Origin: Oceanobacillus oncorhynchi
GTDB lineage: Bacteria; Bacillota; Bacilli; Bacillales; Amphibacillaceae
Length of the DNA: 64,000 bases
Direction of reading: 5' to 3'
Assembly: GCF_000821065.1 (NCBI RefSeq)
Contig: NZ_CDGG01000001.1
Span: 682,001 to 746,000, forward strand
Position numbers and translations under genes: made by a program. The notes below the pieces were generated by a model. The model saw nothing but the letters and a program-made list of their open reading frames with translations, did no database searches and was not told where the DNA came from. Below, in pieces: positions 11,502-64,000 of this stretch (position 1 is its first letter; each line of letters begins with the position of its first letter).

Positions 11502-11521
11502 ATTTCAATTTAAAAAAAATG

Positions 11522-35834: not shown

Positions 35835-36551
35835 ATGAAACCACTATTTGAAAAAATACCGCAGCGAGATTCCATACGTGAGATTATAATGAATCAGTTT
35901 ACGAAAATGATTAAAGAAGGGGAGCTGTCCATAGGTGATAAAATCCCTCCTGAACGAAATCTGGCAGAACAGTTTGGTGTCGGGAGGTCGACGATCCGAG
36001 AAGCGATTAAAAGTATGACTTCCATGGGATTGCTTGAAGCAAGGTTAGGGGAAGGCACCTTTGTGCGAAAAGTGGATTCGGATGATATTAAACAACAGCT
36101 GCAATGGGGACTATACCTTGATCCGGTTCCTTTTAACGAATTGATTGAATTAAGAAAGGTTTTAGAACTGGAAACTGTGAAGCGGGCTGCTTTAAACCGG
36201 ACAGCAGAAGAGATCATCGAATTAGAATCCTGGATTAATGAAATGAAGCAAGAAGGGAAGGTACATCACAATAAGAAAAATGATTTGATGTTTCATATGA
36301 CTATAGCTAAGGCGAGTAATAACAAAATGATTTATAATCTGCTGGATTTAATTCGAATGTCGCTGGAAGAATGGTTTGAAAATGTACTGAAGAATCCCGA
36401 GCATGTGAAGAACTCGATTGCGGAGCATCAATTAATATTAGAAGCAATTATACAACAGGATGTTGCGCAGGCGGTAAAGGTGATGGAAGCACATCTGGAA
36501 CGCGGCGAACAGAGGTTGTTTGAGCAAATTAATCAAAATAAGGATGGCTAA
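35835..36551 (+). CDS. GntR-family regulator, FadR subfamily
   Basis: The 238-residue protein has a winged helix (IPPERNLAEQFGVGRSTIREAIKSMTSMGLLEARLGEGTFV, about 40-80) and an FCD domain of helices with putative metal ligands (RKVLELETVKRAA near 115; HMTIAKASNNKM near 155; SIAEHQLILEAI near 200; MEAHLERGEQRLF near 220). The ATG at 35835 follows CAGGAG; the one at 35802 lacks a site. It heads the acid-sugar cluster in the same direction, though the dispersed repeat at 36572-36725 lies between. FCD regulators usually sense organic or sugar acids, which fits the downstream pathway. Confidence 0.9.
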   Translation: MKPLFEKIPQRDSIREIIMNQFTKMIKEGELSIGDKIPPERNLAEQFGVGRSTIREAIKSMTSMGLLEARLGEGTFVRKVDSDDIKQQLQWGLYLDPVPFNELIELRKVLELETVKRAALNRTAEEIIELESWINEMKQEGKVHHNKKNDLMFHMTIAKASNNKMIYNLLDLIRMSLEEWFENVLKNPEHVKNSIAEHQLILEAIIQQDVAQAVKVMEAHLERGEQRLFEQINQNKDG

Positions 36552-36571
36552 GTAATCAATCTATGATTTAT

Positions 36572-36725
36572 CACGGAGAAGCGTCCGTAAAACTCCTGCC
36601 TTCAAATAAAGAGTAAACACAAATTTATTTTGGCGGGAGATAACTGACGCTAACTCTCTGAATCACTTAGGCTAATTCAGTGGAAGAAGAACAAACACTC
36701 CCACTGAATGAAGTTTCGTTTTATA
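36572..36725 (-). repeat. Dispersed structured repeat, copy 2
   Basis: It is the reverse-complement counterpart of 14954-15108. The pairing CGCCCGT/ACGGGCG of copy 1 is replaced here by GCGTC/GACGC, a C-G to U-A type double change that keeps the stem. The repeat lies between the FadR-type regulator and dctP and overlaps an apparent upstream extension of dctP, which is not real coding. Confidence 0.8.
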
Positions 36726-36797
36726 TCCTTAAAGGGGGTGATGCAAAGCTATATTGTCTGGAAAATAAAAAATGCAAAAGGGAGGGAAATACGTTTC

Positions 36798-37814
36798 ATG
36801 AAAAAACTCATTTTTATTTTAGGACTGTTTACTGTTCTCGTCATGTATGGCTGCGGAGGTTCCAGCAGTGAGACGAATGCGGAAGAAGAAGTAGTAGAAA
36901 TCAGTATTGGGCATGTTGGGGCGCCGGTCAGTCCACAACAAGGGGCAGCAGATATCTTTACGGAATTGGTAGAAGAAAAAACAGGCGGCTCCGTTGAAAT
37001 TAAAATCTATAATTCATCCCAGCTCGGTGACGAAAGAGAGCTTGTGGAAGGGGTGCAGATGGGAACAATCGATGGAGGGATTATTTCCGCAGGCTTGTTT
37101 GCTTCCAGCTACAATGTAATGGAAGCGTTTGAAGTACCGTTCTTATTTGAAGATACCGAGCATACATTAGCGGTCAACAATGGAGAGATAGGCAGAGAAG
37201 TATTGGATAATCTCGAAGCAAACGCAGGATTGAAAGCCCTTTCTTTGTGGGAGCATGGATTTAGACAGATTACCAATTCAAGAGGACCTATTGATACACC
37301 AGAGGATTTACAGGGACTTAAAATAAGAAGTCCGGAAGTACAATCGTACAGTGTTGCTTTGCAGGAATTTGGAGCGAACCCGATTCCGCTGTCTTTTTCA
37401 GAGTTATATGTAGCGATGGACAGAGGAGTTGTGGACGGTCAGCATAATCCGTTAATGCATATTGAAGGACAGCGATTCTACGAGGTACAGGATTATCTGA
37501 CGGTCATGGATTTTGCTTATACACCAAATGTTCTGGCGTTGAGTGATTCGATATGGGAGCAGTTGTCAGAGGAGCAGCAGAATGCATTGGATGAGGCGGC
37601 ATTAGAAACGGCAGAGCTTTGGGCAGAAGAAGCTGCCGAAGAAAATGAAGAAATCCTAACCGAATTAGAAGACAAAATAGAAATTATTCATAAGGAAGAC
37701 CTGGATTGGGAGGCGTTTAAGCAAGTTGTAGAAGATGTTTATCCAGTCTATGAAGAAGAGTATGGCAGCGAATTTGTTCAATTCTTAGAAGAAGTACAAG
37801 CTGCAGCAAATTAA
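36798..37814 (+). CDS. TRAP transporter solute-binding lipoprotein (DctP family)
   Basis: The 338-residue protein has a lipoprotein signal (MKKLIFILGLFTVLVMYGC, Cys19), so it is anchored outside the membrane. The DctP fold shows IGHVGAPVSPQQGAADIF, the SSQLGDERELVEGVQMGTIDG segment, and the carboxylate-binding Arg region TPEDLQGLKIRSPE near 185 with SFSELYVAMDRGVVDGQ near 225. ATG at 36798 has GGAGGG at 36781. It captures a sugar acid for the DctQ/DctM permease encoded at 39373-41187. Order P-(enzymes)-M-Q is unusual in that two non-transport genes separate it from the permease. Confidence 0.9.
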   Translation: MKKLIFILGLFTVLVMYGCGGSSSETNAEEEVVEISIGHVGAPVSPQQGAADIFTELVEEKTGGSVEIKIYNSSQLGDERELVEGVQMGTIDGGIISAGLFASSYNVMEAFEVPFLFEDTEHTLAVNNGEIGREVLDNLEANAGLKALSLWEHGFRQITNSRGPIDTPEDLQGLKIRSPEVQSYSVALQEFGANPIPLSFSELYVAMDRGVVDGQHNPLMHIEGQRFYEVQDYLTVMDFAYTPNVLALSDSIWEQLSEEQQNALDEAALETAELWAEEAAEENEEILTELEDKIEIIHKEDLDWEAFKQVVEDVYPVYEEEYGSEFVQFLEEVQAAAN

Positions 37815-37865
37815 ATAGACATGATTTTATCAGAAAATAAATTGCTAGAAAGGATGTATCACATA

Positions 37866-38348
37866 ATGAAAGAAACAAGAGTACAGTATGCAACTGGAGA
37901 AATCGGTAAAACCGTAGCGGGGAGATTATTGCCGGGAACGGATTTAATTACTGGGATTGAAGAAATCTGTAAAGCGAATGATATTACGTATGCGTCTATT
38001 GCCAACTGCTTTGGCAGTTTTCAAGAAGCGGCCTATATGTATCTCGTTCCACAAGAAGAATCTGTCGTCGGTGCCGGATATGGCGAATTATTTGTGGCAG
38101 ACGGTCCAGTCGAGTTTTTAAATGGTACGGGCGTTGTTTGTCAGCGGGACGGAGATTATGATACGCATTTTCACGCTACGATGTGTGATAAAGAAGGAAA
38201 GGTATTCGGCGGGCACATGGTGAAGGATAAAACACCGGTTCTGACAACTGTTGATCTGGTCATTAATGAAGTGAAACATGTGCATATGTATCGCGATTAT
38301 GATAAAGAGACAGAACTAATTCAATTTAATCCGAAAGCAAAAGCATAG
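37866..38348 (+). CDS. PPC (DUF296) domain protein
   Basis: The 160-residue protein has the plants-and-prokaryotes-conserved domain: RLLPGTDLITGIEEICKAN, ASIANCFGSFQEA, and the metal-site pattern THFHATMCDKEGKVFGGHM near 102-118 (HxH then GGH). PPC domains form trimers and were first known from AT-hook DNA-binding proteins; prokaryotic stand-alone ones have no settled role. ATG at 37866 follows AAAGG about ten bases upstream. Its place in an acid-sugar operon, 52 bp after dctP and before the dehydrogenase, argues for a metabolic role. The operon lacks the usual isomerase. Confidence 0.83.
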   Translation: MKETRVQYATGEIGKTVAGRLLPGTDLITGIEEICKANDITYASIANCFGSFQEAAYMYLVPQEESVVGAGYGELFVADGPVEFLNGTGVVCQRDGDYDTHFHATMCDKEGKVFGGHMVKDKTPVLTTVDLVINEVKHVHMYRDYDKETELIQFNPKAKA

Positions 38349-38375
38349 ATGGCTAAAATAACGCATTAAAAAAGA

Positions 38376-38427
38376 CATAGCCATCTGAACCAAGAACATC
38401 TCCGACAATGTTGTTCAGATGGCTATG
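38376..38427 (+). other. Intra-operon stem-loop
   Basis: CATAGCCATCTGAAC (38376-38390) and GTTCAGATGGCTATG (38413-38427) form a perfect 15-bp stem with further pairing inside (AACAT/ATGTT). There is no T-run after it and the next ribosome site follows at once. It probably affects mRNA stability or processing between the PPC and dehydrogenase genes. Confidence 0.75.
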
Positions 38428-38455
38428 CAAATCAATTATAAGGAGATTATACGAT

Positions 38456-39376
38456 ATGAATAACAAAAATTCAATTGGTTTCATCGGTTTAGGTGTCATG
38501 GGATTCCCCATGGCCAGCAATTTATTACGGGAAGGCAAAGAACTAGTCGTTTTTGATATTAATGCCGAACAAGCAGCGCGGCTTCCCTATCAGGAGCGTG
38601 TGACCATTGCATCCTCGAAGGAAGAATTAGCAAAACAGGTTGATATGGTACTGCTTATGCTGCCAAACAGTCCGCATGTGAAAGAAGCAGTGACTGGAGA
38701 GGGCGGGCTAATAGAGAGTTTGCCGGCTGGAGCTTTACTTATTGATATGAGCAGTATTTCTTCCACGGTTACAAAGGAAATAAATAAAAAGCTGGAGGAA
38801 AAGAACATCGACATGCTCGATGCGCCTGTCAGCGGCGGCCAGAATGGAGCTATGAATGGAGCATTGACCTTTATGGTTGGAGGAAAAAAAGCGAATTACT
38901 ATAAAGCACTTGAATTGCTGCAAATCATGGGAGAAAAAGTGATTCATTGCGGGGAAGTTGGGAGCGGTCAGACAGTGAAGATTGTTAACCAGCTGATGTC
39001 TGCAGTAAACCTAGTCAGCATGTCAGAAGGATTTACGTTAGGCGTCAAAGGAGGCGTTGATCCGGAAATTATGCGTGAGGTTATTTTAAATGGTTCTGGA
39101 AGATGCTGGGCACTTGAGGATAGAATGCCGGTTATTTTAGATCGGAATTTTGAACCGGGCTTTACGGTCGATTTGCATACAAAAGATATCTCCTTGGCGC
39201 TGGAAGTGGGGAAAGAACTGCAGGTACCGTTATATGCCACCTCGCTCGTCCATGAACTATTTAAAACATTACAGGCGAAAGGGGAAGGTGGAAAGGATAA
39301 TTCGGCAGTGATTACGTTATACGAAGCGTTAGCAGAAACGGAAGTAATCAAACGGAATAAGGCGGTAATACAATGA
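38456..39376 (+). CDS. 3-hydroxyisobutyrate/L-threonate dehydrogenase-like NAD(P) enzyme (LtnD type)
   Basis: The 306-residue beta-hydroxyacid dehydrogenase has an N-terminal Rossmann motif (IGFIGLGVMGFPMASNLL), substrate motif DAPVSGGQNGAMNGALTFMVGG near 120 and the catalytic Lys near 173 in GSGQTVKIVNQLM. AAGGAG precedes the ATG. In the described L-threonate pathway, LtnD oxidises C2 of the acid; the company of DUF1537 kinase and class II aldolase supports this branch here. It overlaps dctM by four bases (ATGA), so translation is coupled. Glyoxylate or tartronate semialdehyde reductase activity is an alternative. Confidence 0.87.
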   Translation: MNNKNSIGFIGLGVMGFPMASNLLREGKELVVFDINAEQAARLPYQERVTIASSKEELAKQVDMVLLMLPNSPHVKEAVTGEGGLIESLPAGALLIDMSSISSTVTKEINKKLEEKNIDMLDAPVSGGQNGAMNGALTFMVGGKKANYYKALELLQIMGEKVIHCGEVGSGQTVKIVNQLMSAVNLVSMSEGFTLGVKGGVDPEIMREVILNGSGRCWALEDRMPVILDRNFEPGFTVDLHTKDISLALEVGKELQVPLYATSLVHELFKTLQAKGEGGKDNSAVITLYEALAETEVIKRNKAVIQ

Positions 39377-40656
39377 CTTCGGCCGTCGTTTTATTTGTAT
39401 CTTTTCTTATCTTTTTGCTGCTGGGAATACCAGTCGCTTTTGGGCTGGCAGGGGCCTCTATCCTATCCTTGCTAATGATAGATTCTGGTATGATGACACA
39501 GGTTTTTTCAAAGATGTTTTCTGGCGCAAATTCCTGGCTGCTACTAGCCATCCCGTTTTTTATCCTTGCCGGTAATATCATGGAAAAGGGCGGGGTAACC
39601 AGACGTCTGGTTGATTTTGCAGATGCACTTGTCGGATTTCTGCCGGGCGGTCTCTCAGCAACAAATGTGACGGCCAGTATGTTTTTCGGAGGAGTCTCTG
39701 GTTCCGCTGTAGCTGATACGTCTGCGACAGGAACGATACTGATTCCGGCAATGGTCAGGCAGGGCTACAGCTCCAAGTATTCAGCAGCCATTACAGCTGC
39801 TTCATCGCCTATTGGAATTATTATACCACCAAGTATCCCGATGATATTATGGGGCTTCACTGCCGGTCTTTCGGTAGCTGATTTATTTTTAGCTGGTATC
39901 GGAGCGGGGATTTTAGTCGGTGTTGCTTTATTAGCAGCGTCTACGGTGGTTTCGATAAAAAGAGGGTATAAGTCATCGATTCCTTTCTCATTTAAAAATG
40001 TATTCGGGAAAGGGAAAGAAGGTATTTTAGCTTTGGTCACACCAGCAATTATCATTGTTGGAATTATTACCGGGGTTGTTACCCCAACGGAAGCGGCAGT
40101 TGTCGCTGTGATCTATTCGATGATACTTGGTTTCTTTGTATACCGAGAATTAAAAATCAAGCACCTGAAGGATATTATTATTAATTCCGGCAAAATGACT
40201 GCCACGGTTATGATGATTATTATTAGCGCATCAGCTTTTTCTTACTTGTTGACTATTAACGATGTACCGAGCAGTTTGGCTGGTTTTGTGATTGACATGA
40301 ATCTATCACCCTTTTTGCTGATGCTTATGTTTATTTTGTTATTCCTGTTTTTAGGAATGTTCTTAGATGCCAATGCAGCTATTATTATGACGGTTCCTGT
40401 GATTGCTCCGGTAATTGTCGCGTCTGGAATCGACCCGATTCATGCCAGCGTTGTATTAATTGCAACATTAGGGGTAGGATTGTTGACGCCTCCAGTAGGC
40501 TTATGTACGTATGTGGCTGCCGGGATTGCGAATTTGAGGTTTGACGAACTGATGCGGGATCTTGTCCCATTTGTCATCGTGTTATTAACATGCGTTATTC
40601 TCATGCTCGTATTTCCGCAGATTATTACATTTATACCGAGCTTATTAAATGGATAG
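39373..40656 (+). CDS. dctM: TRAP transporter large permease (DctM)
   Basis: The 427-residue, about 12-helix membrane protein has the DctM family signatures IPFFILAGNIMEKGGVTRRLVDFADALVG near 60 and FGGVSGSAVADTSATGTILIPAMVRQGYS near 105. It couples sodium influx to uptake of the acid delivered by the lipoprotein at 36798. Start overlaps the upstream stop; dctQ follows 18 bp later. Confidence 0.93.
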   Translation: MTSAVVLFVSFLIFLLLGIPVAFGLAGASILSLLMIDSGMMTQVFSKMFSGANSWLLLAIPFFILAGNIMEKGGVTRRLVDFADALVGFLPGGLSATNVTASMFFGGVSGSAVADTSATGTILIPAMVRQGYSSKYSAAITAASSPIGIIIPPSIPMILWGFTAGLSVADLFLAGIGAGILVGVALLAASTVVSIKRGYKSSIPFSFKNVFGKGKEGILALVTPAIIIVGIITGVVTPTEAAVVAVIYSMILGFFVYRELKIKHLKDIIINSGKMTATVMMIIISASAFSYLLTINDVPSSLAGFVIDMNLSPFLLMLMFILLFLFLGMFLDANAAIIMTVPVIAPVIVASGIDPIHASVVLIATLGVGLLTPPVGLCTYVAAGIANLRFDELMRDLVPFVIVLLTCVILMLVFPQIITFIPSLLNG

Positions 40657-40674
40657 AAGAGAGGTGAAATTTAC

Positions 40675-41187
40675 ATGTTGATTTCAAAGGTAAGTAAAAG
40701 CTTGGACAGGCTATGCATACTTCTGTTAGTTGTAATTACAGCAGTGATGACAGGCAGCCTGGTCATCATGATTTTTGGCAGGAATTTCTTTAACACTTCC
40801 TTTGCGTCCTTGGAAGAAATCTCAAGATATACGTTTGTATGGCTGACCTTTATCGGTGCAGCAATTGCTTTTAAACGAAAAGAACACATGGGGATGGATT
40901 TTATCGTCAGTAAATTAAGAGGAAAAGCAGCAAAATATGTGGAAGCCTTGCAGGATATTTTTGCGCTGATTCTATTTGCTTTGTTTATCTATTATGGGGC
41001 CGAGTTAGCGATACTTAATATGAATGTAGTCAGTCTCCAATCAGGGATTCCAATGGGGTACGTCTATTTCATCATTCCGATATCCGGTTTCATTATGGCA
41101 GTACATGCCATAGATCATATGATAAAAAGAGCGAATAAGAAAAATAGTCATTATGAAATAGTAAATAATGAAGCATCTTCTATATAG
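40675..41187 (+). CDS. dctQ: TRAP transporter small permease (DctQ)
   Basis: The 170-residue protein has four hydrophobic helices and the DctQ motif RNFFNTSFASLEEISRYTFVWLTFIGAAIAFKRKEHMGMD (residues 32-71). It partners DctM. GAGGTG precedes the ATG. Position after dctM instead of before it is less common but seen in other operons. Confidence 0.9.
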   Translation: MLISKVSKSLDRLCILLLVVITAVMTGSLVIMIFGRNFFNTSFASLEEISRYTFVWLTFIGAAIAFKRKEHMGMDFIVSKLRGKAAKYVEALQDIFALILFALFIYYGAELAILNMNVVSLQSGIPMGYVYFIIPISGFIMAVHAIDHMIKRANKKNSHYEIVNNEASSI

Positions 41188-41220
41188 GAGATAGTATATT
41201 CCTGATGGAGGGATTGACAA

Positions 41221-42612
41221 ATGCAGTTAGAAGAAAGACTCTTAAGCTTCTATGGGGATGATTTTACAGGTTCAACTGATGCAATGGAGGCATTGACACT
41301 TAGCGGTTTACGAACCATTTTATTTTTAGAACCGCCTACCAAAGAACTGCTTGATGAAAAGTTTACAGATGTAGCCTGTATCGGAGTTGCCGGGATCAGC
41401 CGAACGATGAGTCCAGAGCAAATGGAAACAGATTTGAAGCCGATATTAAAACAAATCCAAGAACTCGGTGCATCGATTAATCACTATAAAATATGCTCTA
41501 CCTTTGATTCTTCCCCGACGGTGGGGAATATCGGAAGAGTGCTGGAAATGATTTTAGATATAAATCATACGCAAGCCTTTGTCCCTATCATTGCAGGAGC
41601 AACACCATTACAGCGTTATACCGTGTTCGGCAATCATTTTGCCAGAGTGGATAGTAAAACGTTTCGTCTGGATGAGCACCCTGTGATGTCGAGGCATCCG
41701 ATTACGCCGATGCAGGAAGCTAATTTAATCAAACATTTGAGTAAACAAACGAGTTATCCGGTTGATTTGGTAGATGTTTTATCCATGGATGATCATTTTA
41801 CCGAGCTTGAAGCAACGGTGGAGCGAATCGTTACAAAGCAAAAACCAAAGGGACTTCTATTTGATATGCTGACAAGCAATCATTTAACGAAAATAGGAAA
41901 GTTTATTTACGAAGAATCTAAAGAGAAGCCACTATTTGTCATAGGCTCCTCTGGAGTGGAATATGCGTTGACGAATTATTGGAGTTCTATGCAGGACCTG
42001 AAGAAACAGGAAGCTAACGTGGATAAGATAAATAAGACAGAAAAAGAGCAGATATTGGTTGTTTCCGGAAGCTGTTCCCCGATTACTTCTGAACAAATCA
42101 AACATGCTTTAGACAATGGATTCACTGGTTTAAAAGTTTCTCCTGTTAAATTGATAGATCCGAAAACAGGCTCATCCTATTTTAATGACCTTATGAAGAC
42201 AGTTACGGAATTGATTAATGCAGGGGAGAACGTCATCGTTTACTCAGCACTTGGATCGGATGATTCATCAATTGAGGAAACAAGAGAATACCTGCAATCT
42301 ATCGGAGCAGAACCTACCAGCAGCGGACAGCTTCTAGGCGAGCAGTTCGGAAAATTAATAAAAAAGACAGTAGAAAATACATCCTTAAACCGCATCGTCA
42401 TTGCTGGAGGAGATACATCAAGCTATGCGACACAGGAAATGGGTATTTATGCATTAGAAATGATACGCAGTGTCGCTCCAGGGGCGCCTCTTTGTAAATC
42501 GTATTCAAATACGCAACGATTTGATGGAGTGGAGATAGCCTTAAAGGGAGGCCAGCTGGGTCAAGTCGATTACTTTTCTAAAGTGCATCTGGGAAGCAAC
42601 GTAACTGTATAG
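41221..42612 (+). CDS. Four-carbon acid sugar kinase (DUF1537 family)
   Basis: The 463-residue protein has the N-terminal substrate motif SFYGDDFTGSTDAMEAL (residues 9-25) and a C-terminal nucleotide-binding half with VVSGSCSPITSEQI near 280, IVIAGGDTSSYATQEMG near 395 and ALKGGQLGQVDYF near 440. DUF1537 enzymes phosphorylate threonate or 3-oxo-tetronate. Beside a dehydrogenase and a class II aldolase, the 3-oxo-tetronate 4-kinase role (OtnK) is most likely. It starts 33 bp after dctQ and is followed by the aldolase 24 bp later. Confidence 0.88.
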   Translation: MQLEERLLSFYGDDFTGSTDAMEALTLSGLRTILFLEPPTKELLDEKFTDVACIGVAGISRTMSPEQMETDLKPILKQIQELGASINHYKICSTFDSSPTVGNIGRVLEMILDINHTQAFVPIIAGATPLQRYTVFGNHFARVDSKTFRLDEHPVMSRHPITPMQEANLIKHLSKQTSYPVDLVDVLSMDDHFTELEATVERIVTKQKPKGLLFDMLTSNHLTKIGKFIYEESKEKPLFVIGSSGVEYALTNYWSSMQDLKKQEANVDKINKTEKEQILVVSGSCSPITSEQIKHALDNGFTGLKVSPVKLIDPKTGSSYFNDLMKTVTELINAGENVIVYSALGSDDSSIEETREYLQSIGAEPTSSGQLLGEQFGKLIKKTVENTSLNRIVIAGGDTSSYATQEMGIYALEMIRSVAPGAPLCKSYSNTQRFDGVEIALKGGQLGQVDYFSKVHLGSNVTV

Positions 42613-42636
42613 AGGAGACGATTGGAGGGAGGATCA

Positions 42637-43275
42637 ATGGATATAGAATCAAAAATCATTCATACCGGAAATGAATTACTGCAGAAGCATCTCACATGGG
42701 GAAATTCCGGAAATATGAGTGTCCGTAAAAACGAAAATCAAATGATTATAACCGGTTCAGGGACAAATATGGGCAATCTGACAGAAGGTGATTGTGTTTT
42801 TGTTAATATCGAAACGCAAGCATGGGAGGGGACGAGGAAGCCTTCTAAGGAAATACCAATGCATCGCGCAATATATAGGAATCGGCCTGATGCCAACGTA
42901 GTTATTCATGCATCCCCGTTCTGGTCAACGCTTGTGGCTTGTTCGGAAGAGGTCATAGAATCGAAACTATTTATTGAATCGATGTATTATCTTGAGAAAA
43001 TAGAAGAAGTCGCATATTTTCATCCGGGCAGTACAGCTTTAGGAGAAGAAGTTGGAGAGGCAGCGAAGAAGGCGAATGTTCTATTTTTGAAGAATCATGG
43101 GATTATTGTTTTCGATGATAGTGTGGAAGAAGCGATAATGCGGTTGGAAACGTTGGAGTTTACTTGTCGGATGATGGTTATGGCTAAGGCTTCGGGTGTG
43201 GCGTTGAGCGCGTTGTCCGATGATATCGTAAAGGACTTTTTGGAGAATTCGGGGTATAGGAATAGAGATAGATAA
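42637..43275 (+). CDS. Class II aldolase/3-oxo-tetronate-4-phosphate decarboxylase-like protein
   Basis: The 212-residue protein has the class II aldolase/adducin fold: LTWGNSGNMSVR near 20, ITGSGTNMGNL near 40, the Glu in SKEIPMHRAIYRNRPD, and a third zinc ligand in LKNHGIIVF near 150. In OtnC-type enzymes this step gives dihydroxyacetone phosphate and CO2. Oddly, the paired zinc histidines (HxH) read HAS here, so one ligand appears replaced by Ser. GGAGGGAGG before ATG 42637 fixes the start; the TTG at 42622 lies upstream of it. It is the last gene of the acid-sugar operon. Confidence 0.85.
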   Translation: MDIESKIIHTGNELLQKHLTWGNSGNMSVRKNENQMIITGSGTNMGNLTEGDCVFVNIETQAWEGTRKPSKEIPMHRAIYRNRPDANVVIHASPFWSTLVACSEEVIESKLFIESMYYLEKIEEVAYFHPGSTALGEEVGEAAKKANVLFLKNHGIIVFDDSVEEAIMRLETLEFTCRMMVMAKASGVALSALSDDIVKDFLENSGYRNRDR

Positions 43276-43818: not shown

Positions 43819-44532
43819 ATGAGAGATTTTCTTAATAAAAATAGTAGCATCCCATTATATTATCAAGTTAAAGAAGTTATAAAAGAAAAGATAAAATCTG
43901 AGGAATGGAAAAATGATGAAAAAATACCAAATGAACTGGAGTTAGTAGAACAATTTAACGTCAGTAGATCAACAGTTCGACAGGCTATTTTGGAGTTAGT
44001 GAACGAAGGGTTATTGACAAGAAAAAAAGGGCATGGTACTTTTGTGAAAAAACTCCAACATGAAGGTAACTTTATGACTTTTTCTTATCCCGATGAACTT
44101 GGAAAAAAGCATATTCCAATTAGCGCCAAGGTTATAGAAGGGCCATTAGAATATTTGCATATCTTTAAGTTATATAACAGTAAAAAAATAAATGAAACAA
44201 TTCGTTTAAGGTATTTTAAGGAAGATCCGGCTATTATTGAAAGAACTTATCTTCCCTATTATCTTTTTCCAGATATTTTAAATAAAGATATGGAAAAACC
44301 TATATATGATACTGTTATAGATGATTACAAGATTAATATAATTCGTCATAAAGTTTATATAGAACCAATATTACTTGATGAGTATGATGCTAATCTGTTA
44401 GGAGTTGATTCAGGTCAGCCTGCCTTAAAAACAACAAAGATATGCGAAACTTCAAACAACTTGCCAATATTATTAACTATAAGTATCTTTAGAGAAGATA
44501 GAAGTAAATTATTTTTTCAATATGATGTATAG
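43819..44532 (+). CDS. GntR/HutC-family regulator with UTRA domain
   Basis: The 237-residue protein has a GntR winged helix (IPNELELVEQFNVSRSTVRQAILELVNEGLLTRKKGHGTFV, residues 33-73) and a UTRA domain (about 95-235). It is only weakly similar to the one at 5533. Its AT content is high and the ribosome site is poor (ATAGGACAG). It heads the argininosuccinate-lyase-like/TAXI operon in the same direction, with direct repeats in the 690-bp gap, which fits a local regulator of that operon. Confidence 0.88.
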   Translation: MRDFLNKNSSIPLYYQVKEVIKEKIKSEEWKNDEKIPNELELVEQFNVSRSTVRQAILELVNEGLLTRKKGHGTFVKKLQHEGNFMTFSYPDELGKKHIPISAKVIEGPLEYLHIFKLYNSKKINETIRLRYFKEDPAIIERTYLPYYLFPDILNKDMEKPIYDTVIDDYKINIIRHKVYIEPILLDEYDANLLGVDSGQPALKTTKICETSNNLPILLTISIFREDRSKLFFQYDV

Positions 44533-44560
44533 GAATAAAGATATTTTTTATTTTTCTATA

Positions 44561-44667
44561 TATGTACGTACATACTGACATGTATCCTCATTTCTAGGTT
44601 TATATATTTCTTAGGTACATATAAACCTAGAATAATTCAACTTTCGTATGTACGCACATACTAACAT
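44561..44667 (+). promoter_or_regulatory. Direct repeats flanking a hairpin: candidate operator and attenuator
   Basis: TATGTACGTACATACTGACA (44561-44580) recurs as TATGTACGCACATACTAACA (44647-44666). Each contains the palindromic core TATGTACGTACATA or its near copy. Between them TTCTAGGTTTATAT pairs with ATATAAACCTAGAA (44592-44632). The arrangement suggests a DNA loop or attenuator controlled by the GntR/UTRA protein just upstream. Confidence 0.6.
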
Positions 44668-44940
44668 AAGAGGAGAGGATTGTTTCAATTGGATACTTTA
44701 GGAAATTGAAAATGCTTATTTATATTAGAATTACTTTTAATTTTACTTACATCCAATGATATAGTTAAAAAAAGAGAAAGAAGTAGAACCTAATATTGAT
44801 GTATAAAGTTATGAATTAAGTAATTTTAGGGAAAATTGTAGTATCTTTATATAATTTCACAATTTATTGTAAGCGCATACTATATTGTGATATTCCCATA
44901 AAAATTAGTTGTTAAAAAGGAGGTGTTTAAAATTAAAAAT

Positions 44941-45195
44941 ACAAACTTAAACGACTTAAAAATTTGTATTATAGGTTCGGGCGATGGTGTTTAGCAGCAG
45001 CCACAGATTAACCTTACGAGGACATAAAGTTATATTAGCAGAATTAAGGAGAAAGGAGGAATACACCTTGAAACATTAGAAAGAACTGGATTAAAAGGTG
45101 AGTTTACTACAATTTATAAAGTAACAACAAATGTTTCTGAAGTAAAAATAGTATTAATTGTCACACCTTCTTTTCCTCATAAATAAATTGCAGAC
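44941..45195 (+). pseudogene. Decayed N-terminus of an opine-dehydrogenase-like gene
   Basis: Pieces in shifting frames read LKICIIGSGDG, then RGHKVILAEL, then HLETLERTGLKGEFTTIYKVTTNVSEVKIVLIVTPSFPHK before a TAA. These match the first 90 residues of the gene at 49721 (FTIIGAGNGG..., VEGFFASVEATTDIEKAMKDTDVIMVTTTGPAHK). A good ribosome site (AAGGAGGTG) is kept near 44923. It is a degenerate paralogue at the 5' end of the operon whose last gene is the intact form. Confidence 0.72.
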
Positions 45196-45222
45196 ACTTT
45201 CTGATAAGGAGGAATTTTTGTA

Positions 45223-46698
45223 ATGAGAGAACGCCTAAAATCAAATTTATCAAATAATATCATTACGCATCTATTTGCACCATCCATAGAAATAGAACAA
45301 TACCGTTCGTTTGAATCGATGATGGAAGTAAATAAAGCACATCTAGTTATGCTAATTTCAGAAGGTATTATAAAACTTGAAGTTGGTAAAGAAATTATGG
45401 ATTCATTAGAAGAAATCGGTGAAGCTGGTCCGGAGCAACTGGAAATTGATCCGAATCTGGAAGATTTATATTTTAATATAGAAGCAGTCTTGATTAATAA
45501 GGTAGGTAAAGAAATTGGCGGTCAGTTACACACAGGAAGGAGCAGAAATGATTTATATGCGACCGTACTTAGATTAAATAGCCGGAAGTCTGTGCTCGAA
45601 ATCTGTCATTTGTTGATTGAGCTTCGTTATACGCTACTTACGCTTGCTGAAAAGTACAAAAATGCTGTGATGACGGCTTATACGCATATGCAGCCAGCTG
45701 AACCGATAACATTAGGACATTATCTTTCGGCAATACTTTATGCGTTAGATAGGGATTTTAGCCGATTCATAGCTGCTTTTCATCGTACGAATTATTCTCC
45801 TTTGGGAGCGGGAGCTACGGCATCAACGACATTTCCGATTAATAGGAAGCAGACAGCAAGATTGTTAGGCTTTATCAATCCAATGGGGAATTCGTTGGAT
45901 GGGATTGCTTCTCGTGATTATTTGCTGGAAATTGTATCTGCAATGAATATCTTTGCAAACAATATGAGTCGTCTCAGTCAGGATCTGTATATTTGGTCGA
46001 CCGATGAATTTGGACTTGTTGAAGTGGATGATTCTGTAGCTGCGAGCAGCAGTATTATGCCGCAGAAAAAGAATCCAATTACATTGGAACATATTAAAGC
46101 AAAGTCTGGACATGTGCTGGGCGGATTAGTTTCTATGACGAGCATTATGAAGAACACGCCATATGGACATTCACGGGACTTGGCAGGGGAGAGTCACAAA
46201 GGATTTTGGGAAGCTGTTTCTGAAATAAAGGCAGCTGCTGTTTTAATGAATGAAACGCTTGATACAGTAAGTTTTAAAGAAGAGCAAATGATAAAACGGG
46301 CGAAGAATAATTTTTCCACTGTCACAGAATTAGCCAATGTACTGGTAAGGGAAGGGGGGATTTCTTTTCGTGAAGCGCATCAGATTGTTGGCCAGCTTGT
46401 TAGTGAAATGATAGAAGCGAATACACCAGTCACTAAAGTTACATCAGAAGCAATCGGAAAAATTTCTTATCAACTATTAGGAAAAGAACTCGTTATTACA
46501 GAAGTTTCTATTAATAAAGCACTAGACCCAGCGGAGAATGCAAAGGCAAAAAATGCAGAAGGTGGTCCTGCACCAAACACTGTAGAATTGCAATTAGAAG
46601 CAATGAGGAACAAGCTTCATAAAGATCGTAAATGGTTAGAAGAGCAATATAAAGTTATAGAAGAGCGAAAAGAAGATTTATCGAATTTCATAAAATAA
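45223..46698 (+). CDS. Argininosuccinate lyase-like member of the fumarase/aspartase superfamily
   Basis: The 491-residue protein has the superfamily motifs HTGRSRNDLYATVLRLNSR near 105, TAYTHMQPAEPITLGHYL near 152 and the signature SSSIMPQKKNPITLEHIKAKSG near 276, which carries the catalytic Ser loop. True ArgH is usually 455-475 residues and reads MPQKKNPDVAELIRGK; here the following stretch, including MKNTPYGHSRDLAGE, is divergent. The family breaks C-N bonds releasing fumarate. Partners are a TAXI-TRAP importer and an opine-dehydrogenase-like gene, not arginine genes, so I infer a catabolic role on an N-substituted aspartate rather than arginine synthesis. AAGGAGG precedes the ATG. Confidence 0.85.
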   Translation: MRERLKSNLSNNIITHLFAPSIEIEQYRSFESMMEVNKAHLVMLISEGIIKLEVGKEIMDSLEEIGEAGPEQLEIDPNLEDLYFNIEAVLINKVGKEIGGQLHTGRSRNDLYATVLRLNSRKSVLEICHLLIELRYTLLTLAEKYKNAVMTAYTHMQPAEPITLGHYLSAILYALDRDFSRFIAAFHRTNYSPLGAGATASTTFPINRKQTARLLGFINPMGNSLDGIASRDYLLEIVSAMNIFANNMSRLSQDLYIWSTDEFGLVEVDDSVAASSSIMPQKKNPITLEHIKAKSGHVLGGLVSMTSIMKNTPYGHSRDLAGESHKGFWEAVSEIKAAAVLMNETLDTVSFKEEQMIKRAKNNFSTVTELANVLVREGGISFREAHQIVGQLVSEMIEANTPVTKVTSEAIGKISYQLLGKELVITEVSINKALDPAENAKAKNAEGGPAPNTVELQLEAMRNKLHKDRKWLEEQYKVIEERKEDLSNFIK

Positions 46699-46730
46699 CA
46701 TTTTCATTAACTTATAGGAGGTCAATGTGT

Positions 46731-47741
46731 ATGCTTAAAATATTGAATATTATTAAGGTTATGATTATTATTTGTGTAATTCTTGTTTTTGCTTATGGAT
46801 GCTCAAATGATGAAGCTGGTGAAGCAGAAGGGCCAAACGACAGCTCTAACCTGTTATTGGGTACGTCAAGCCAAGGAGGAACCTATTATGTTTGGGGAGG
46901 CGGCTGGGCAGATATTATCGGAAATACACTTCCGGAAGTAGATGTGTCTGTAGAAGTGTCGGGTGGTCCAGCTTCGAATGTTCAATTAATTCAGAGTGGA
47001 GAAATGGACTTAGGATTTGTGACAACATGGTTGGGTGCAGAAGGATATAACGGCGAAGGATGGACAGATGTAGAACATGATAAGATTCGCGGGATGTTTA
47101 TCATGTATCCGAGTGTAATGCATATGTATTCTCTGCAAGGAAATGGAATTAAGACAATAGCAGATTTTAGTGGAAATCATGTTAGTACTGGACCGCCAGG
47201 AAGTACAAGTGCAGAGGCGGGAGAAATATTGATGAATGCACTTGGTATTGAACCAGGCAAAGTAAGTAATATACCAACCAATACAGCCGTTGACGGGTTA
47301 AGAGATGGAACAAATGATGCGGGGTTTGCCATCACGGGATTACCAGGACCTTTTATGTTGGATTTAGAAACAACACATGATGTTCAGCATATAGGCTTAT
47401 CTAATCAAGAAATGGAAACAGTTTTATCTGAAAATCCATATTGGGATTCTATCGTTATACCTGAAGATACCTATCAGCATTTAGAAGAAGATATCTCTGT
47501 AGTTGCTTTTTGGAATTTAGCTGTTGCATCGGAAGATTTATCAGAAGACTTAGTATATGACTTGGTGAAAACAACTTTTGAAAAACATGAAGAATTATTA
47601 GCAGTGGATCCGACAGCAAAAGATACCATTGCGGAGAATATTACGTATAGTACGGTTCCGCTTCATCCAGGTGCTATAAAGTACTATGAAGAACAGGGGA
47701 TTGATATACCAGATGATCTTATCCCGCCAGAAATGGAATAG
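46731..47741 (+). CDS. TAXI-family TRAP transporter solute-binding lipoprotein
   Basis: The 336-residue lipoprotein (FAYGCS lipobox, Cys24 from the chosen ATG at 46731; GGAGG is ten bases upstream) has TAXI-family motifs: LLLGTSSQGGTYYVWGGGWADII near 45, VEVSGGPASNVQLIQSGEMDLGFV near 80 and the GPPGSTSAEAGEILMNALGI segment near 160. TAXI proteins deliver carboxylates such as glutamate, oxoglutarate or related acids to fused permeases. The permease gene starts 42 bp downstream. Cotranscribed with the lyase 32 bp upstream. Confidence 0.9.
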   Translation: MLKILNIIKVMIIICVILVFAYGCSNDEAGEAEGPNDSSNLLLGTSSQGGTYYVWGGGWADIIGNTLPEVDVSVEVSGGPASNVQLIQSGEMDLGFVTTWLGAEGYNGEGWTDVEHDKIRGMFIMYPSVMHMYSLQGNGIKTIADFSGNHVSTGPPGSTSAEAGEILMNALGIEPGKVSNIPTNTAVDGLRDGTNDAGFAITGLPGPFMLDLETTHDVQHIGLSNQEMETVLSENPYWDSIVIPEDTYQHLEEDISVVAFWNLAVASEDLSEDLVYDLVKTTFEKHEELLAVDPTAKDTIAENITYSTVPLHPGAIKYYEEQGIDIPDDLIPPEME

Positions 47742-47783
47742 GGGATAAAATGATATTCAATTCTGTGGTACCAGGAGGTATAT

Positions 47784-49724
47784 ATGTCTAATAATTCAAA
47801 ACCTGAGAATACCGAAGTAGAAGTGAAAAGTACAAAAAGAAGTCTAAAAGGATATCAATTGAAAGTGTTTATTACGATTGCATCCTTTATGTCATTATTT
47901 CATCTTTTTGTATTGGGATTTTACCCTATTACACCATGGGTATTATACACTGTCCATGTAGGATTGGGAGCGATATTGGTTTTTTTGGTCTATCCTTTTA
48001 AAAAGTCAACCAAAAGTGAAAGCGTAACCATCGTTGATATGTTACTGATTTTATCTGTTATCTTTGCAGGCACCTATCTTATATTGGAAATGGATCAGCT
48101 GATATATCGGATTGGTGTGGCACCAACTAATTTAGATTTAATCGTCAGTATCTTGTTAATTGGAGTTGTTTTGGAAATAACTCGAAGAACAACGGGACTT
48201 ATCTTACCAATTTTGGCAATACTTTTTATCTTATATTCTTATTTCGGTGCGTATTTTCCCGGGATTTTAGAACATAGAGGATATGGATGGGATAGAGTTC
48301 TAAGTTATCTGATTAGTTTGGAAGGTATATTTAGTGTTCCAATTGGTGCGTCTGCGAGTTTTGTATTCCTATTTATCCTGTTTGGAGCTTTCTTGGCTGA
48401 ATCTGGAGGGAGTAAATTCTTTATTAATTTTGCAATTGGAGCAACAGGAGGAAAACGGGGAGGCCCAGCTAAAGCAGCAGTATTATCCAGCGCACTATTT
48501 GGGTCTGTATCTGGAAATTCTGTAGCTAATGTTGTTTCTACGGGTGTATTTACAATTCCTTTAATGAAGAAAATTGGTTACTCGCCGAGATATGCAGGGG
48601 CGATTGAGTCGGTAGCTTCCACGGGTGGTCAGATTATGCCTCCGATATTGGGTTCAGCAGCTTTTATTATGGCACAGTTAGTAGGAGTTGCTTATTTAGA
48701 TATTGTGGCAGCCTCTGTTATTCCTGCGCTATTATATTTTGTTACTGTCATTATTATTATCGACTTACAAGCTGCGAAGTTAGGTTTAAAAGGGATGCCA
48801 AGCCATATGCTTCCGAATTTAAAGCAAATCATCATCAAAGAAGGCTACCTGTTTATTCCATTGCTAGTCTTAATATTTGTAATGACTGTATTAAAAGCAA
48901 GTCCTATCAAAGCAGCGATTTGGGCAATCGCATCGATTATCGTGGTTACTATATGGAGAAAGAAAACGAGATTAGGGCCTAAAAGGATTATTAAAAGTCT
49001 ATCTAATGGAGCAGATTCTGCTTTGGGTATGATTGCTGCCTGTGCAACTGCAGGTATTATTATCGGTGTACTTAATTTAACCGGAGCAGGCTTAAAATTT
49101 GCATCACTAATTATTTCTTTTTCAGGAGGGCACCTGTCAATTGCACTTGTTCTAACCATGTGCGCAACGATTATTTTAGGGATGGGACTGCCGACAACAG
49201 CAGCTTATCTAATTACTGCTGCAGTTGTTGCACCAGCATTAATTCAAATGGGAGTCGATCCGATCGGTGCGCATATGTTTGTATTTTACTTTGCATGTTT
49301 GTCTGCTTTCACGCCACCTGTGGCATTGGCAGCATATGCAGCAGCTGGAATTTCCCAAGCTAAGCCAATGCAAGTTGCTATGACGGCAATGAAAGTTGGC
49401 ATTGTAGCATTTATCATTCCGTTTGTTTTTGTTTATGGTCCGGCTATTCTTTTGAATGGTTCGGTTATGGAGATTATTCTTGCTACAATTACTGCTTTAG
49501 CAGGTGCTTTTATGTTAGCGAGTGCAGTAGAAGGATGGTTTTTAGCAGCAAAAGCATCCATTGTTGTAAGAATTTTATTGATTAGCAGTGCTTTAATGAT
49601 GATTATTCCTGGTATTTTAACAGATATTATTGGGATTGCAATTGTAGTATTGGCTGTTTTTTATCAAATTATTGTTAAAAAGAAAAGAACACATATAAAA
49701 CAAGAAGAGGAGAATGCGATATGA
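47784..49724 (+). CDS. TRAP transporter fused permease (4TM/12TM)
   Basis: The 646-residue protein has about 18 hydrophobic segments: a DctQ-like N-terminal part fused to a DctM-like part with FGSVSGNSVANVVSTGVFTIPLMKKIGYSPRYAGAIESVASTGGQIMPPILG near 235-285 and GMGLPTTAAYLITAAVVAPALIQMG near 470. This is the standard TAXI-associated permease. AGGAGG precedes the ATG. It overlaps the next gene by four bases. The acid imported is unknown. Confidence 0.93.
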   Translation: MSNNSKPENTEVEVKSTKRSLKGYQLKVFITIASFMSLFHLFVLGFYPITPWVLYTVHVGLGAILVFLVYPFKKSTKSESVTIVDMLLILSVIFAGTYLILEMDQLIYRIGVAPTNLDLIVSILLIGVVLEITRRTTGLILPILAILFILYSYFGAYFPGILEHRGYGWDRVLSYLISLEGIFSVPIGASASFVFLFILFGAFLAESGGSKFFINFAIGATGGKRGGPAKAAVLSSALFGSVSGNSVANVVSTGVFTIPLMKKIGYSPRYAGAIESVASTGGQIMPPILGSAAFIMAQLVGVAYLDIVAASVIPALLYFVTVIIIIDLQAAKLGLKGMPSHMLPNLKQIIIKEGYLFIPLLVLIFVMTVLKASPIKAAIWAIASIIVVTIWRKKTRLGPKRIIKSLSNGADSALGMIAACATAGIIIGVLNLTGAGLKFASLIISFSGGHLSIALVLTMCATIILGMGLPTTAAYLITAAVVAPALIQMGVDPIGAHMFVFYFACLSAFTPPVALAAYAAAGISQAKPMQVAMTAMKVGIVAFIIPFVFVYGPAILLNGSVMEIILATITALAGAFMLASAVEGWFLAAKASIVVRILLISSALMMIIPGILTDIIGIAIVVLAVFYQIIVKKKRTHIKQEEENAI

Positions 49725-50806
49725 AATTTACGATTATTGGAGCTGGAAATGGTGGACAAAGCATGGCGGCTCATTTAACTTCTATAGAACAGGATGTCAT
49801 TTTATATGATGTGCAAACGGATTTGATTGCAGCGATTAATGAGCGTGGTGGAATCAAAGCGGAAGGTGTAGTGGAAGGTTTTTTTGCAAGTGTAGAAGCA
49901 ACCACAGATATAGAGAAGGCTATGAAAGATACAGACGTCATTATGGTGACAACAACCGGACCAGCTCATAAACATGTTGCAAAGGCTGTTGTTCCATTTC
50001 TACAAGATGAACAGACGATTATGATTTTACCGGGGTATTGGGGAGCACTTGAGTTTAGAAATGTCTTCAAAGAGGCCGGTTGCGAAAAAAATGTATATGT
50101 TGCTGAAACAGAGTCACTTATCTACACCTGTCGTTCCATTGAGCCGGGATATGTCCGTATTCGAAAAATAAAAGAAGGATTAGAATTTGCAACGCTCCCA
50201 GCGGTGGATGGAGAAAAAGTAAAAAGTCAATTGATGGATGTTTATCCGCAGCTCAAATTGACGGATAGCGTTTTAACCACAACTTTGAATAACACAAATC
50301 CTGTTTTTCATGTGCCAATTACATTATTTAATGCAGGCAGAATTGAAGCAGAGGGAGACTTTTACTTTTACCCGGATGGAGCAACCCCTTCCATTGTTCA
50401 GATCATGGAAAAATTGGAAGAGGAGAAAAGACAGATTGCTGAAAAACTGCAAATAGATTTAGCTTCCTGTCAAGATTTGCTTGCCCGTTTCTATCAAGTA
50501 GAGGAAAAAAGCTTGTACGAAGCTCTTCAAAAAAATCCTGCTTATCAGACAGGAAAAGCACCCACAACGCTAAACTACCGTTATATCTACGAGGATATCC
50601 CATATGGGCTGTATCCGCTGGTGAAGCTGGGTGAACAATTAGGGGTAGAAATGAAAACAGCCAAGTTGCTCATAGAAACGGCTGAATTATTGGTTGATAA
50701 GGATTTACAAAAAGATGGGCTGGAATTATCTGATTTAGGTTTAGCTGATATGTCAGGCGATGAGATGAAGAAATATTTGATTGAAGGGGTGAAGCAGGGA
50801 GTTTAA
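49721..50806 (+). CDS. NAD/NADP octopine/nopaline dehydrogenase family protein
   Basis: The 361-residue protein has an N-terminal Rossmann domain (FTIIGAGNGGQSMAAHL; IMVTTTGPAHKHVAKAVVPFL) and an octopine-dehydrogenase alpha-helical C-domain from about 180, with NTNPVFHVPITLFNAGRIE holding the catalytic-type Asn/His pair. Family members oxidise or form N-(carboxyalkyl)amino acids (opines), or reduce related keto acids. Start overlaps the permease stop (ATGA), so it belongs to the uptake operon. In a catabolic setting it would split an opine to an amino acid and a keto acid. Confidence 0.87.
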   Translation: MKFTIIGAGNGGQSMAAHLTSIEQDVILYDVQTDLIAAINERGGIKAEGVVEGFFASVEATTDIEKAMKDTDVIMVTTTGPAHKHVAKAVVPFLQDEQTIMILPGYWGALEFRNVFKEAGCEKNVYVAETESLIYTCRSIEPGYVRIRKIKEGLEFATLPAVDGEKVKSQLMDVYPQLKLTDSVLTTTLNNTNPVFHVPITLFNAGRIEAEGDFYFYPDGATPSIVQIMEKLEEEKRQIAEKLQIDLASCQDLLARFYQVEEKSLYEALQKNPAYQTGKAPTTLNYRYIYEDIPYGLYPLVKLGEQLGVEMKTAKLLIETAELLVDKDLQKDGLELSDLGLADMSGDEMKKYLIEGVKQGV

Positions 50807-50880
50807 AGGTATGAAGTGTGAGGGAACGGCTTAGAGATTAGAGTTTGTTTTAGTTGATTGATAGTAAATATGTTATTTAG

Positions 50881-50914
50881 GCACCTGGATTGGATTTGAT
50901 CTGGGTGTTTTTTT
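50881..50914 (+). terminator. Terminator of the lyase/TAXI operon
   Basis: CACCTGGAT and ATCTGGGTG pair with one wobble and one mismatch, followed by T8. Confidence 0.78.
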
Positions 50915-63988: not shown

Positions 63989-64000
63989 TACGAGATTTAC

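What the first reader, a model, noticed from the sequence alone, without database searches (positions are those of the whole stretch)
43819..50806. Candidate undescribed catabolic system: argininosuccinate-lyase-like enzyme with TAXI-TRAP importer and opine dehydrogenase
The gene order is GntR/UTRA regulator, (decayed opine dehydrogenase), fumarase-superfamily lyase, TAXI lipoprotein, fused permease, opine dehydrogenase. The lyase differs from ArgH in length and around the MPQKKNP signature and no arginine gene is near. Known argininosuccinate-lyase-like enzymes include C-N lyases acting on aminocarboxylic acids such as EDDS, releasing fumarate. I infer an imported N-substituted aspartate or opine that is cleaved by the lyase and dehydrogenase. 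This combination is unfamiliar to me; I cannot exclude an earlier description.
Basis: partly seen in the sequence, partly recalled or inferred. Interest (0 to 1): 0.72.

Follow-up and report, generated by a model that had tools for sequence, protein, structure and literature searches.

The report
Import-and-cleave operon for substituted aspartates
A Bacilli genome carries a small, tightly regulated gene set that looks built to import an aspartate molecule carrying an extra group on its nitrogen and cut it apart, using an enzyme that automatic annotation would mislabel as an arginine-making one.

Summary
The gene order is confirmed: GntR/UTRA regulator, opine dehydrogenase (ODH) remnant, argininosuccinate-lyase-like enzyme, TAXI binding protein, fused TRAP permease, ODH. 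The lyase passes NCBI's argH cut-off, yet the genome has a separate ArgH beside ArgG. The lyase falls outside the ArgH clade and lacks two substrate-side motifs, including the Asp after MPQKKNP (Asp in 72 of 72 ArgH-clade rows and in wild-type EDDS lyase; Ile here). Only one other genome of 398 sampled Bacilli (Ammoniphilus sp. YIM 78166) has the close lyase, and it has the same five-gene unit. An 18-bp operator-like pattern occurs in exactly those two genomes, five times, always just upstream of the lyase. Relatives of the lyase often sit with uptake systems, and in 6 of 19 loci with an asparaginase; none of the 19 is near argG. ODH relatives in Bacilli sit beside diverse transporters. Best reading: import of an N-substituted aspartate, C-N lysis to fumarate plus an amine, with ODH splitting the same or a sister opine-type compound. 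The substrate is unproven: an aspartate opine, a glycated asparagine/aspartate and a chelator-like aminopolycarboxylate remain open. This is a new variant of a known kind; interest is moderate.

The parts
43819..44532 (+). GntR/UTRA (HutC-type) transcriptional regulator
   Evidence: PF00392 + PF07702; 44% identical to the GntR inside the Ammoniphilus operon
44562..44581 (+). operator-like element 1 (16 of 20 positions as in the Ammoniphilus element)
   Evidence: binding by GntR is inferred
44648..44667 (+). operator-like element 2 (15 of 20 positions as in the Ammoniphilus element)
   Evidence: binding by GntR is inferred
44953..45192 (+). probable remnant of an opine dehydrogenase N-terminus, two in-frame stops; rest of the gene missing
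   Evidence: tblastn: 6 of 8 ODH queries hit, best E 4.3e-4
45223..46698 (+). argininosuccinate-lyase-like C-N lyase, 491 aa, not ArgH
46725..47741 (+). TAXI-family TRAP substrate-binding protein, likely a lipoprotein (by eye)
   Evidence: TIGR02122 231.1 bits; pocket comparison
47784..49724 (+). fused TRAP permease
   Evidence: TIGR02123 678.1 bits
49721..50806 (+). opine dehydrogenase, CENDH-like
   Evidence: PF02317; PDB 1bg6 219.9 bits; His/Arg/Asp kept
50879..50910 (+). terminator-like hairpin with T run
   Evidence: the scan is at chance level for the region

Best explanation
A substrate-induced catabolic operon for an imported N-substituted L-aspartate. GntR/UTRA represses at two operators upstream of the unit (inferred from the footprint). 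The TAXI protein captures the compound and the fused TRAP permease imports it (family function; ligand unknown). The lyase removes a C3 proton with the serine of the SSIMPQKKNP loop and expels the amine, giving fumarate plus a primary amine or amino acid (mechanism by homology with ArgH and EDDS lyase, recalled). The opine dehydrogenase cleaves the secondary amine oxidatively to an amino acid and a 2-oxo acid, on the same compound, its other diastereomer or a sister compound. My favoured substrate class is an N-carboxyalkyl aspartate, an 'aspartate opine', because it alone fits both enzymes in one unit. Class of chemistry (N-substituted aspartate lysis): fairly likely, about 0.65. Aspartate opine as the substrate: about 0.3.
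For: Separate ArgH beside ArgG in the same genome. Window lyase groups with the two Ammoniphilus lyases (SH-aLRT 95) outside the ArgH clade. Asp after MPQK[KR]NP in 72 of 72 ArgH-clade rows and 9 of 10 archaeal rows, in none of the 17 natural rows of the catabolic-type set that have the motif and none of 15 rows of a Bacilli-ABC set. The motif Y[NS][KR]D[ML]Qx[DE][KR] is in 64 of 72 ArgH-clade rows, in none of the catabolic-type or Bacilli-ABC rows (and, in this strict form, in none of the 10 archaeal rows, which mostly show YNRD.Q). Wild-type EDDS lyase has Asp290 and Tyr320; the window has Ile286 and His316. Same five-gene unit in Ammoniphilus; operator-like 18-mer in 2 of 398 genomes, 5 sites, all upstream of the lyase. 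argG within 8 kb in 0 of 19 relatives' loci against 30 of 59 ArgH loci; amino-acid ABC or TctC/Bug parts in 10 of 19 against 0 of 59, and transporter genes directly beside the lyase in three more of the 19 (L133, L138 as annotated; L151 by Pfam). The six ODH relatives besides Ammoniphilus in the class sample each lie beside a transporter. ODH keeps His202, Arg292, Asp297 of CENDH. Of 13 ligand-pocket positions of the glutamate-binding VcGluP the TAXI protein keeps 4, but it matches the Ammoniphilus TAXI at 12 of 13.
Against: No ligand or activity is known for any part. The full unit was found in only two genomes, so co-conservation rests on one comparison, and the other genome (G170) has an estimated 7% contamination. 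The lyase passes NCBI's argH equivalog cut-off (435.5 against 279.5 bits). By sequence the best PDB hit is an ArgH (2e9f, 277 bits) ahead of EDDS lyase (258). EDDS lyase is first by Foldseek E-value but with larger rmsd than many ArgH chains and similar TM-scores. The wider grouping of catabolic-type lyases has almost no support (4) and EDDS lyase has a very long branch. Nothing shows that lyase and ODH share a substrate.
Confidence: 0.5

Rival explanations
1. The substrate is a glycated (Amadori) asparagine or aspartate: the lyase releases fumarate and fructosamine from fructosyl-aspartate, and the window unit is the transport-and-lysis half of such a pathway.
For: Lyase relatives lie with asparaginase in 6 of 19 loci and with a deglycase-type SIS protein in 4 of 19, against 0 of 59 ArgH loci for each. 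Agrobacterium sp. 33MFTa1.1 plasmid: asparaginase, GntR, polar amino-acid ABC, MmgE/PrpD, lyase, SIS, PfkB kinase. Cereibacter pB: annotated fructoselysine kinase, asparaginase, lyase, SIS. The Ammoniphilus SIS matches PDB 3eua, titled putative fructose-aminoacid-6-phosphate deglycase, at 409.9 bits. In Salmonella fructose-asparagine is first deamidated by the asparaginase FraE (PMC12051030, one passage).
Against: The window shows none of these genes, and the genome only a sub-cut-off asparaginase match far away (186.1 against 314.3 bits, with a stop inside). In Ammoniphilus they belong to a separate unit with the other lyase copy, 452 nt upstream of the lyase-GntR-TAXI-permease-ODH unit. The SIS and epimerase proteins stay below NCBI's cut-offs for FrlB and FrlC (135.3 and 79.7 against 430; 112.4 against 305). 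Fra-type pathways release aspartate without a lyase. ODH has no obvious role.
Confidence: 0.2
2. The operon degrades aminopolycarboxylates of the EDDS, iminodisuccinate or aspergillomarasmine type.
For: EDDS lyase is first by E-value in the structure search and is aligned to its C-terminal end. In Agrobacterium the gene before the lyase is closest in the PDB to IDS-epimerase (205.8 bits, against 148.1 for B. subtilis IRG1); the known IDS pathway is an epimerase plus a C-N lyase (recalled).
Against: The window lyase lacks Asp290, Tyr320 and Gln159 of EDDS lyase and no epimerase gene was seen beside it; ODH is unexplained unless the amine product is an opine.
Confidence: 0.15
3. The lyase and ODH run in the synthetic direction and make an N-substituted aspartate or opine for secretion.
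For: Opine dehydrogenases and C-N lyases are both used as synthetic enzymes (PMC12363623, passage).
Against: An importer and no exporter in the unit; ODH relatives sit with transporters of several kinds, read here as uptake systems.
Confidence: 0.06
4. A second or back-up ArgH.
For: Passes the TIGR00838 cut-off; best PDB sequence hit is an ArgH.
Against: Own ArgH next to ArgG (657.7 bits); ArgH motifs lost; operon partners.
Confidence: 0.03

Closest known systems
EDDS lyase (Chelativorans sp. BNC1, PDB 6G3D)
   Same: ASL superfamily; aligned over residues 34-488 of the query (257.7 bits); first by Foldseek E-value; makes or splits N-substituted L-aspartates (PMC12363623, abstract)
   Different: 31-32% identity; Ile for Asp290, His for Tyr320, His155 for Gln159; not grouped with the window lyase in the quick tree, where its branch is very long
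Argininosuccinate lyase ArgH
   Same: Fold; SSIMPQKKNP, T-H and GRSRND stretches kept; passes the argH HMM; best PDB sequence hit
   Different: Not in the ArgH clade; no Asp after KKNP; no YN[KR]D motif; no WGGRF; the genome has another ArgH
Fra fructose-asparagine pathway (Salmonella)
   Same: Uptake of an N-substituted Asn/Asp in the idea; relatives of the lyase sit with asparaginase, SIS deglycase-type protein and kinase
   Different: Window lacks asparaginase, kinase and deglycase; the Fra genes named in PMC12051030 (one passage) include no lyase and no ODH
Opine dehydrogenase of Arthrobacter 1C (CENDH, PDB 1BG6)
   Same: 219.9 bits over nearly full length; His202, Arg292, Asp297 kept (roles and strain recalled)
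   Different: Here in an operon with a lyase and TAXI-TRAP; substrate unknown
TAXI-TRAP VcGluP (V. cholerae)
   Same: TAXI family; Ser40, Tyr45, Tyr46, Gly203 kept
   Different: 9 of 13 listed pocket positions differ, among them Gln93 and Glu125 (amine side) and Tyr200, now Thr, Ser and Ala; a plain glutamate binder is unlikely

Membership tests
ArgH (true argininosuccinate lyase) | placement in the ArgH clade | tested here: not met
   quick tree; own ArgH L051 is in the clade, window lyase is not
ArgH (true argininosuccinate lyase) | MPQKKNP followed by Asp; Y[NS][KR]D[ML]Q motif | tested here: not met
   72 of 72 and 64 of 72 in the ArgH clade; absent in the window
ArgH (true argininosuccinate lyase) | curated argH HMM cut-off | tested here: met
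   435.5 against 279.5 bits; the model is not selective here
ArgH (true argininosuccinate lyase) | argG or other arginine genes nearby | tested here: not met
   ArgG is beside the other ArgH
EDDS lyase | fold as in 6G3D | tested here: met
   shared with ArgH
EDDS lyase | substrate-side Asp290, Tyr320, Gln159 | tested here: not met
   Ile286, His316, His155 in the window
EDDS lyase | common clade | tested here: inconclusive
   long branch, support 4 at the deepest forks
Iminodisuccinate C-N lyase | sequence similarity to the characterised enzyme | not testable with these tools
   no sequence of that lyase was found here; only the epimerase (2hp0) could be compared, for a relative's neighbour
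Fra/Amadori pathway | asparaginase, kinase and deglycase in the operon | tested here: not met
   window; seen only at relatives
TAXI-TRAP transporter | TAXI binding protein plus single fused permease | tested here: met
   TIGR02122 and TIGR02123
Opine dehydrogenase | Octopine_DH domain and catalytic His/Arg/Asp | tested here: met
   residue roles recalled
Opine dehydrogenase | activity on a secondary-amine dicarboxylate | not testable with these tools
   needs an assay

The most novel reading that the evidence does not exclude
A scattered, mostly misannotated branch of ASL-like C-N lyases forms a catabolic guild for N-substituted asparagines and aspartates in the environment (glycated Asn/Asp, aspartate opines): an asparaginase where needed makes the aspartate, the lyase ends the pathway at fumarate, and the freed amino-sugar or amino acid goes to a deglycase or dehydrogenase. 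The window unit is the TAXI-TRAP/opine-dehydrogenase version.
Probability: 0.25. Interest if true: 0.7.

Novelty: new variant of a known kind. Interest (0 to 1): 0.5.

Why it matters
Databases name these enzymes ArgH (6 of the first 10 plasmid hits), so a catabolic function may be hidden under an arginine label and arginine prototrophy mispredicted. If right, it links opine-type and possibly Maillard-type compounds to central metabolism through fumarate, gives TAXI transporters a new ligand class to test, and offers C-N lyases whose pocket differs naturally at two positions (290, 320) that were targets of engineering in EDDS lyase (PMC12363623, passages).

Tried and rejected
Rejected: (1) ArgH duplicate (own ArgH, motifs). 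(2) My first reading that EDDS lyase shares the non-Asp residue after KKNP: the chain printed first (6rx8) is the D290M/Y320M variant (title); wild type has Asp, so the claim was dropped. The tree and the table hold that variant as one row, as a fragment (residues 44-488); my counts leave it out. One natural row of that set (L140) has no KKNP; hence 17 rows with the motif. (3) GGP near the C-terminus as a marker: also in 19 of 72 ArgH-clade rows. (4) Lyase as aspartase: the Selenomonadaceae locus has a separate aspartase-family gene beside it. (5) Asparaginase link as exclusive: five archaeal argH loci have a weak asparaginase-family neighbour (GatD by name recalled); archaeal loci were left out of both sides of the count, so its '0 of 59' is for the bacterial ArgH clade only.

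Dropped rows: ArgH loci with under 6 kb held (59 of 72 kept), the Bacilli-ABC set, archaeal loci and L137 (lyase in two pieces); four loci outside the tree (L151, L155, L156, L157) were added. The 19 catabolic loci are not independent: on the tree those with an asparaginase fall in three groups (Ammoniphilus; Selenomonadaceae with L036, the locus of L151; Cereibacter with Cupriavidus); L155 was not in the tree.

Led nowhere: Rfam (only two TPP riboswitches); promoter scan at chance level. Paper searches, all by listing unless said: EDDS lyase with argininosuccinate lyase (0); fructose-asparagine with asparaginase and deglycase (6; passages of one read); argininosuccinate lyase with Amadori and asparaginase (1, off topic); iminodisuccinate with lyase (6, none on this enzyme by title); opine with TAXI and TRAP transporter (1); ASL active-site residue (0); TAXI glutamate structures (6; passages of one read); EDDS/C-N lyase/aspergillomarasmine (7; passages of one read); six-term search (27, 15 listed, none on this combination by title). 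Absence in print is claimed only for these searches of an open-access library.


Full report
What is there. Pfam and NCBIfam give GntR+UTRA, Lyase_1+ASL_C2, TAXI binding protein, fused TRAP permease and Octopine_DH. Gaps are 26 nt, 42 nt and a 4-nt overlap from lyase to ODH, so one transcript is likely; a hairpin with a T run follows at 50879-50910, though such sites are at chance level in the scan. In the 690 nt between regulator and lyase lies a stretch similar to the N-terminus of opine dehydrogenases with two in-frame stops (6 of 8 ODH queries, best E 4.3e-4 in a very small search): a decayed ODH is plausible, not certain.

It is not ArgH. The genome's ArgH is elsewhere (657.7 bits against TIGR00838; the window lyase 435.5, cut-off 279.5) and directly follows ArgG. 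In a tree of 116 rows the window lyase groups with two Ammoniphilus lyases (SH-aLRT 95), outside the clade with the genome's own ArgH (quick method, deepest forks unsupported, EDDS lyase on a long branch). The residue after MPQK[KR]NP is Asp in 72 of 72 ArgH-clade rows and 9 of 10 archaeal ones, but in none of the 17 natural rows of the catabolic-type set that have the motif (the window among them), nor in 15 rows of another Bacilli group. The strict motif Y[NS][KR]D[ML]Qx[DE][KR] is in 64 of 72 ArgH-clade rows and in no row of the other sets, the archaeal ones included, where by eye a related YNRD.Q stands in 9 of 10. Wild-type EDDS lyase keeps the Asp (D290) and a Tyr (Y320); the window has Ile286 and His316 there. 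The EDDS lyase paper lists R112, N113, Q159, N288, D290 and Y320 as within 4-6 A of the substrate and says that a variant called MM has a pocket reshaped for bulkier substrates (PMC12363623, passages); that MM is the D290M/Y320M protein of PDB 6rx8 is my inference from that entry's title. I infer for the window lyase a rather bulky leaving amine without a second positive charge. General motifs (GRSRND, T-H, SSIMPQKKNP) are kept. By sequence the best PDB hit is an ArgH (2e9f, 277 bits), then EDDS lyase (258). The AlphaFold model (mean pLDDT 90.3) matches four EDDS lyase entries first by E-value, then ArgH; TM-scores are close and rmsd is larger for EDDS lyase.

A conserved regulated unit. In the class sample (398 genomes, the own one included) one other genome, G170, has a close lyase (54% and 51%, two copies); its contig has the length and place of a record of Ammoniphilus sp. 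YIM 78166. There lyase, GntR, TAXI, permease and ODH stand in one unit with gaps of -4, 38, 25 and 2 nt, at 54, 44, 57, 63 and 59% identity. The element TATGTACGYACATA with up to one mismatch occurs at only two places in the own genome, both between regulator and lyase. Ammoniphilus has three identical 20-mers and a weaker fourth within 250 nt upstream of its lyase. The pattern TGTACGYACATACNNACA is in 2 of 398 genomes: two sites in the own genome, three in Ammoniphilus, all at this unit; the reversed control pattern hit once, in another genome. This footprint across two families, with a GntR in both units, is the strongest result here. In the own family (159 genomes) the only other match at E <= 1e-95 is a 36% lyase in one congener, not studied further; the ODH has no relative at E <= 1e-60 in 119 other sampled family members. 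The unit was therefore probably acquired.

Neighbours of relatives. Nineteen loci of catabolic-type lyases were compared with 59 ArgH loci by one method: argG 0 against 30; asparaginase 6 against 0; SIS deglycase-type 4 against 0; polar amino-acid ABC parts 4 against 0; TctC/Bug receptor 6 against 0; TAXI and ODH only in Ammoniphilus. Examples: Selenomonadaceae asparaginase-lyase-aspartase; an unnamed Bacilli genome asparaginase-lyase-MFS; Pseudomonas lyase inside a polar amino-acid ABC set; Cupriavidus pinatubonensis lyase and Bug receptor, with an asparaginase on the other strand beyond a transposase gene; Cereibacter sphaeroides pB with annotated fructoselysine kinase, asparaginase, ABC, lyase, SIS; Agrobacterium sp. 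33MFTa1.1 with asparaginase, GntR, ABC, an IDS-epimerase-like MmgE/PrpD protein, lyase, SIS, PfkB kinase. Others show no asparaginase. Ammoniphilus has a neighbouring unit with ABC transporter, MFS, SIS (3eua, 409.9 bits), asparaginase II, the second lyase and an epimerase; SIS and epimerase are below NCBI's FrlB and FrlC cut-offs. I read the asparaginase link as a sign that these lyases act on N-substituted aspartates, some made from asparagine derivatives.

The dehydrogenase and the binding protein. In the class sample 8 of 398 genomes have an ODH at E <= 1e-45 (own included). The six besides Ammoniphilus have it beside a DcuC-family carrier (3; Pfam for two, the third by eye), a sodium:solute symporter (2) or an amino-acid ABC transporter (1), each with a GntR-type gene close by (four by BLAST, two by eye), and a Cytobacillus plasmid has it beside an annotated symporter. 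So this ODH type looks like a catabolic enzyme fed by an importer. All eight ODHs aligned keep His202, Arg292 and Asp297 of CENDH (roles recalled). Of 13 pocket positions of VcGluP (residues from PMC11574862, passages) the window TAXI keeps 4; the amine-side Gln93 and Glu125 are Thr and Ser, Tyr200 is Ala; 12 of 13 positions agree between window and Ammoniphilus. A plain glutamate transporter is unlikely, and both organisms probably take up the same ligand.

Mechanism. Shown: gene content, co-conservation in two genomes, footprint, loss of ArgH motifs. Inferred: repression by GntR, uptake by TAXI-TRAP, elimination to fumarate and an amine, oxidative cleavage by ODH. An N-carboxyalkyl aspartate would satisfy both enzymes; a glycated aspartate would fit the neighbours of relatives but leaves ODH idle; a chelator-like aminopolycarboxylate fits the nearest characterised C-N lyase but not its pocket residues.

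Known or new. Each part belongs to a known family, and C-N lysis of N-substituted aspartates is known. The combination with TAXI-TRAP and ODH and its operator was not found in the paper searches named in Tried and rejected. I file it as a new variant of a known kind.

Noticed in passing
L048, L049, L050 (unnamed Bacilli genomes): A second group of 15 non-ArgH ASL-like lyases (MPQKRNPV) in the tree; in the three loci read it stands with an iron-type ABC set and a PIG-L-like deacetylase, in one also a creatininase-like gene. Looks like another catabolic operon. Gene names by eye.
   Followed up: partly
window 35802-43275: Separate DctPQM-TRAP operon with a GntR regulator, a 3-hydroxyisobutyrate-dehydrogenase-like protein (by eye), an OiaK-like acid-sugar kinase (436.6 bits, below its cut-off of 700) and a class II aldolase: acid-sugar catabolism of unknown substrate.
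   Followed up: no
window 63693-64000: Two TPP riboswitches in tandem.
   Followed up: no
window 901-27938: Several ATP-grasp-like YheC/YheD-type paralogues within 28 kb (named by eye).
   Followed up: no
window 6745-14838: Two long proteins with acidic tandem repeats and peptidoglycan-binding-like repeats (by eye); the repeats leave long open frames in other frames.
   Followed up: no
L167-L172, L139: CENDH-like opine dehydrogenases in Bacilli pair with at least three other transporter types (DcuC, SSF, amino-acid ABC), suggesting a wider opine-uptake guild.
   Followed up: partly
L058, L062, L063, L066, L070: In five archaeal loci an asparaginase-family gene follows argH.
   Followed up: no
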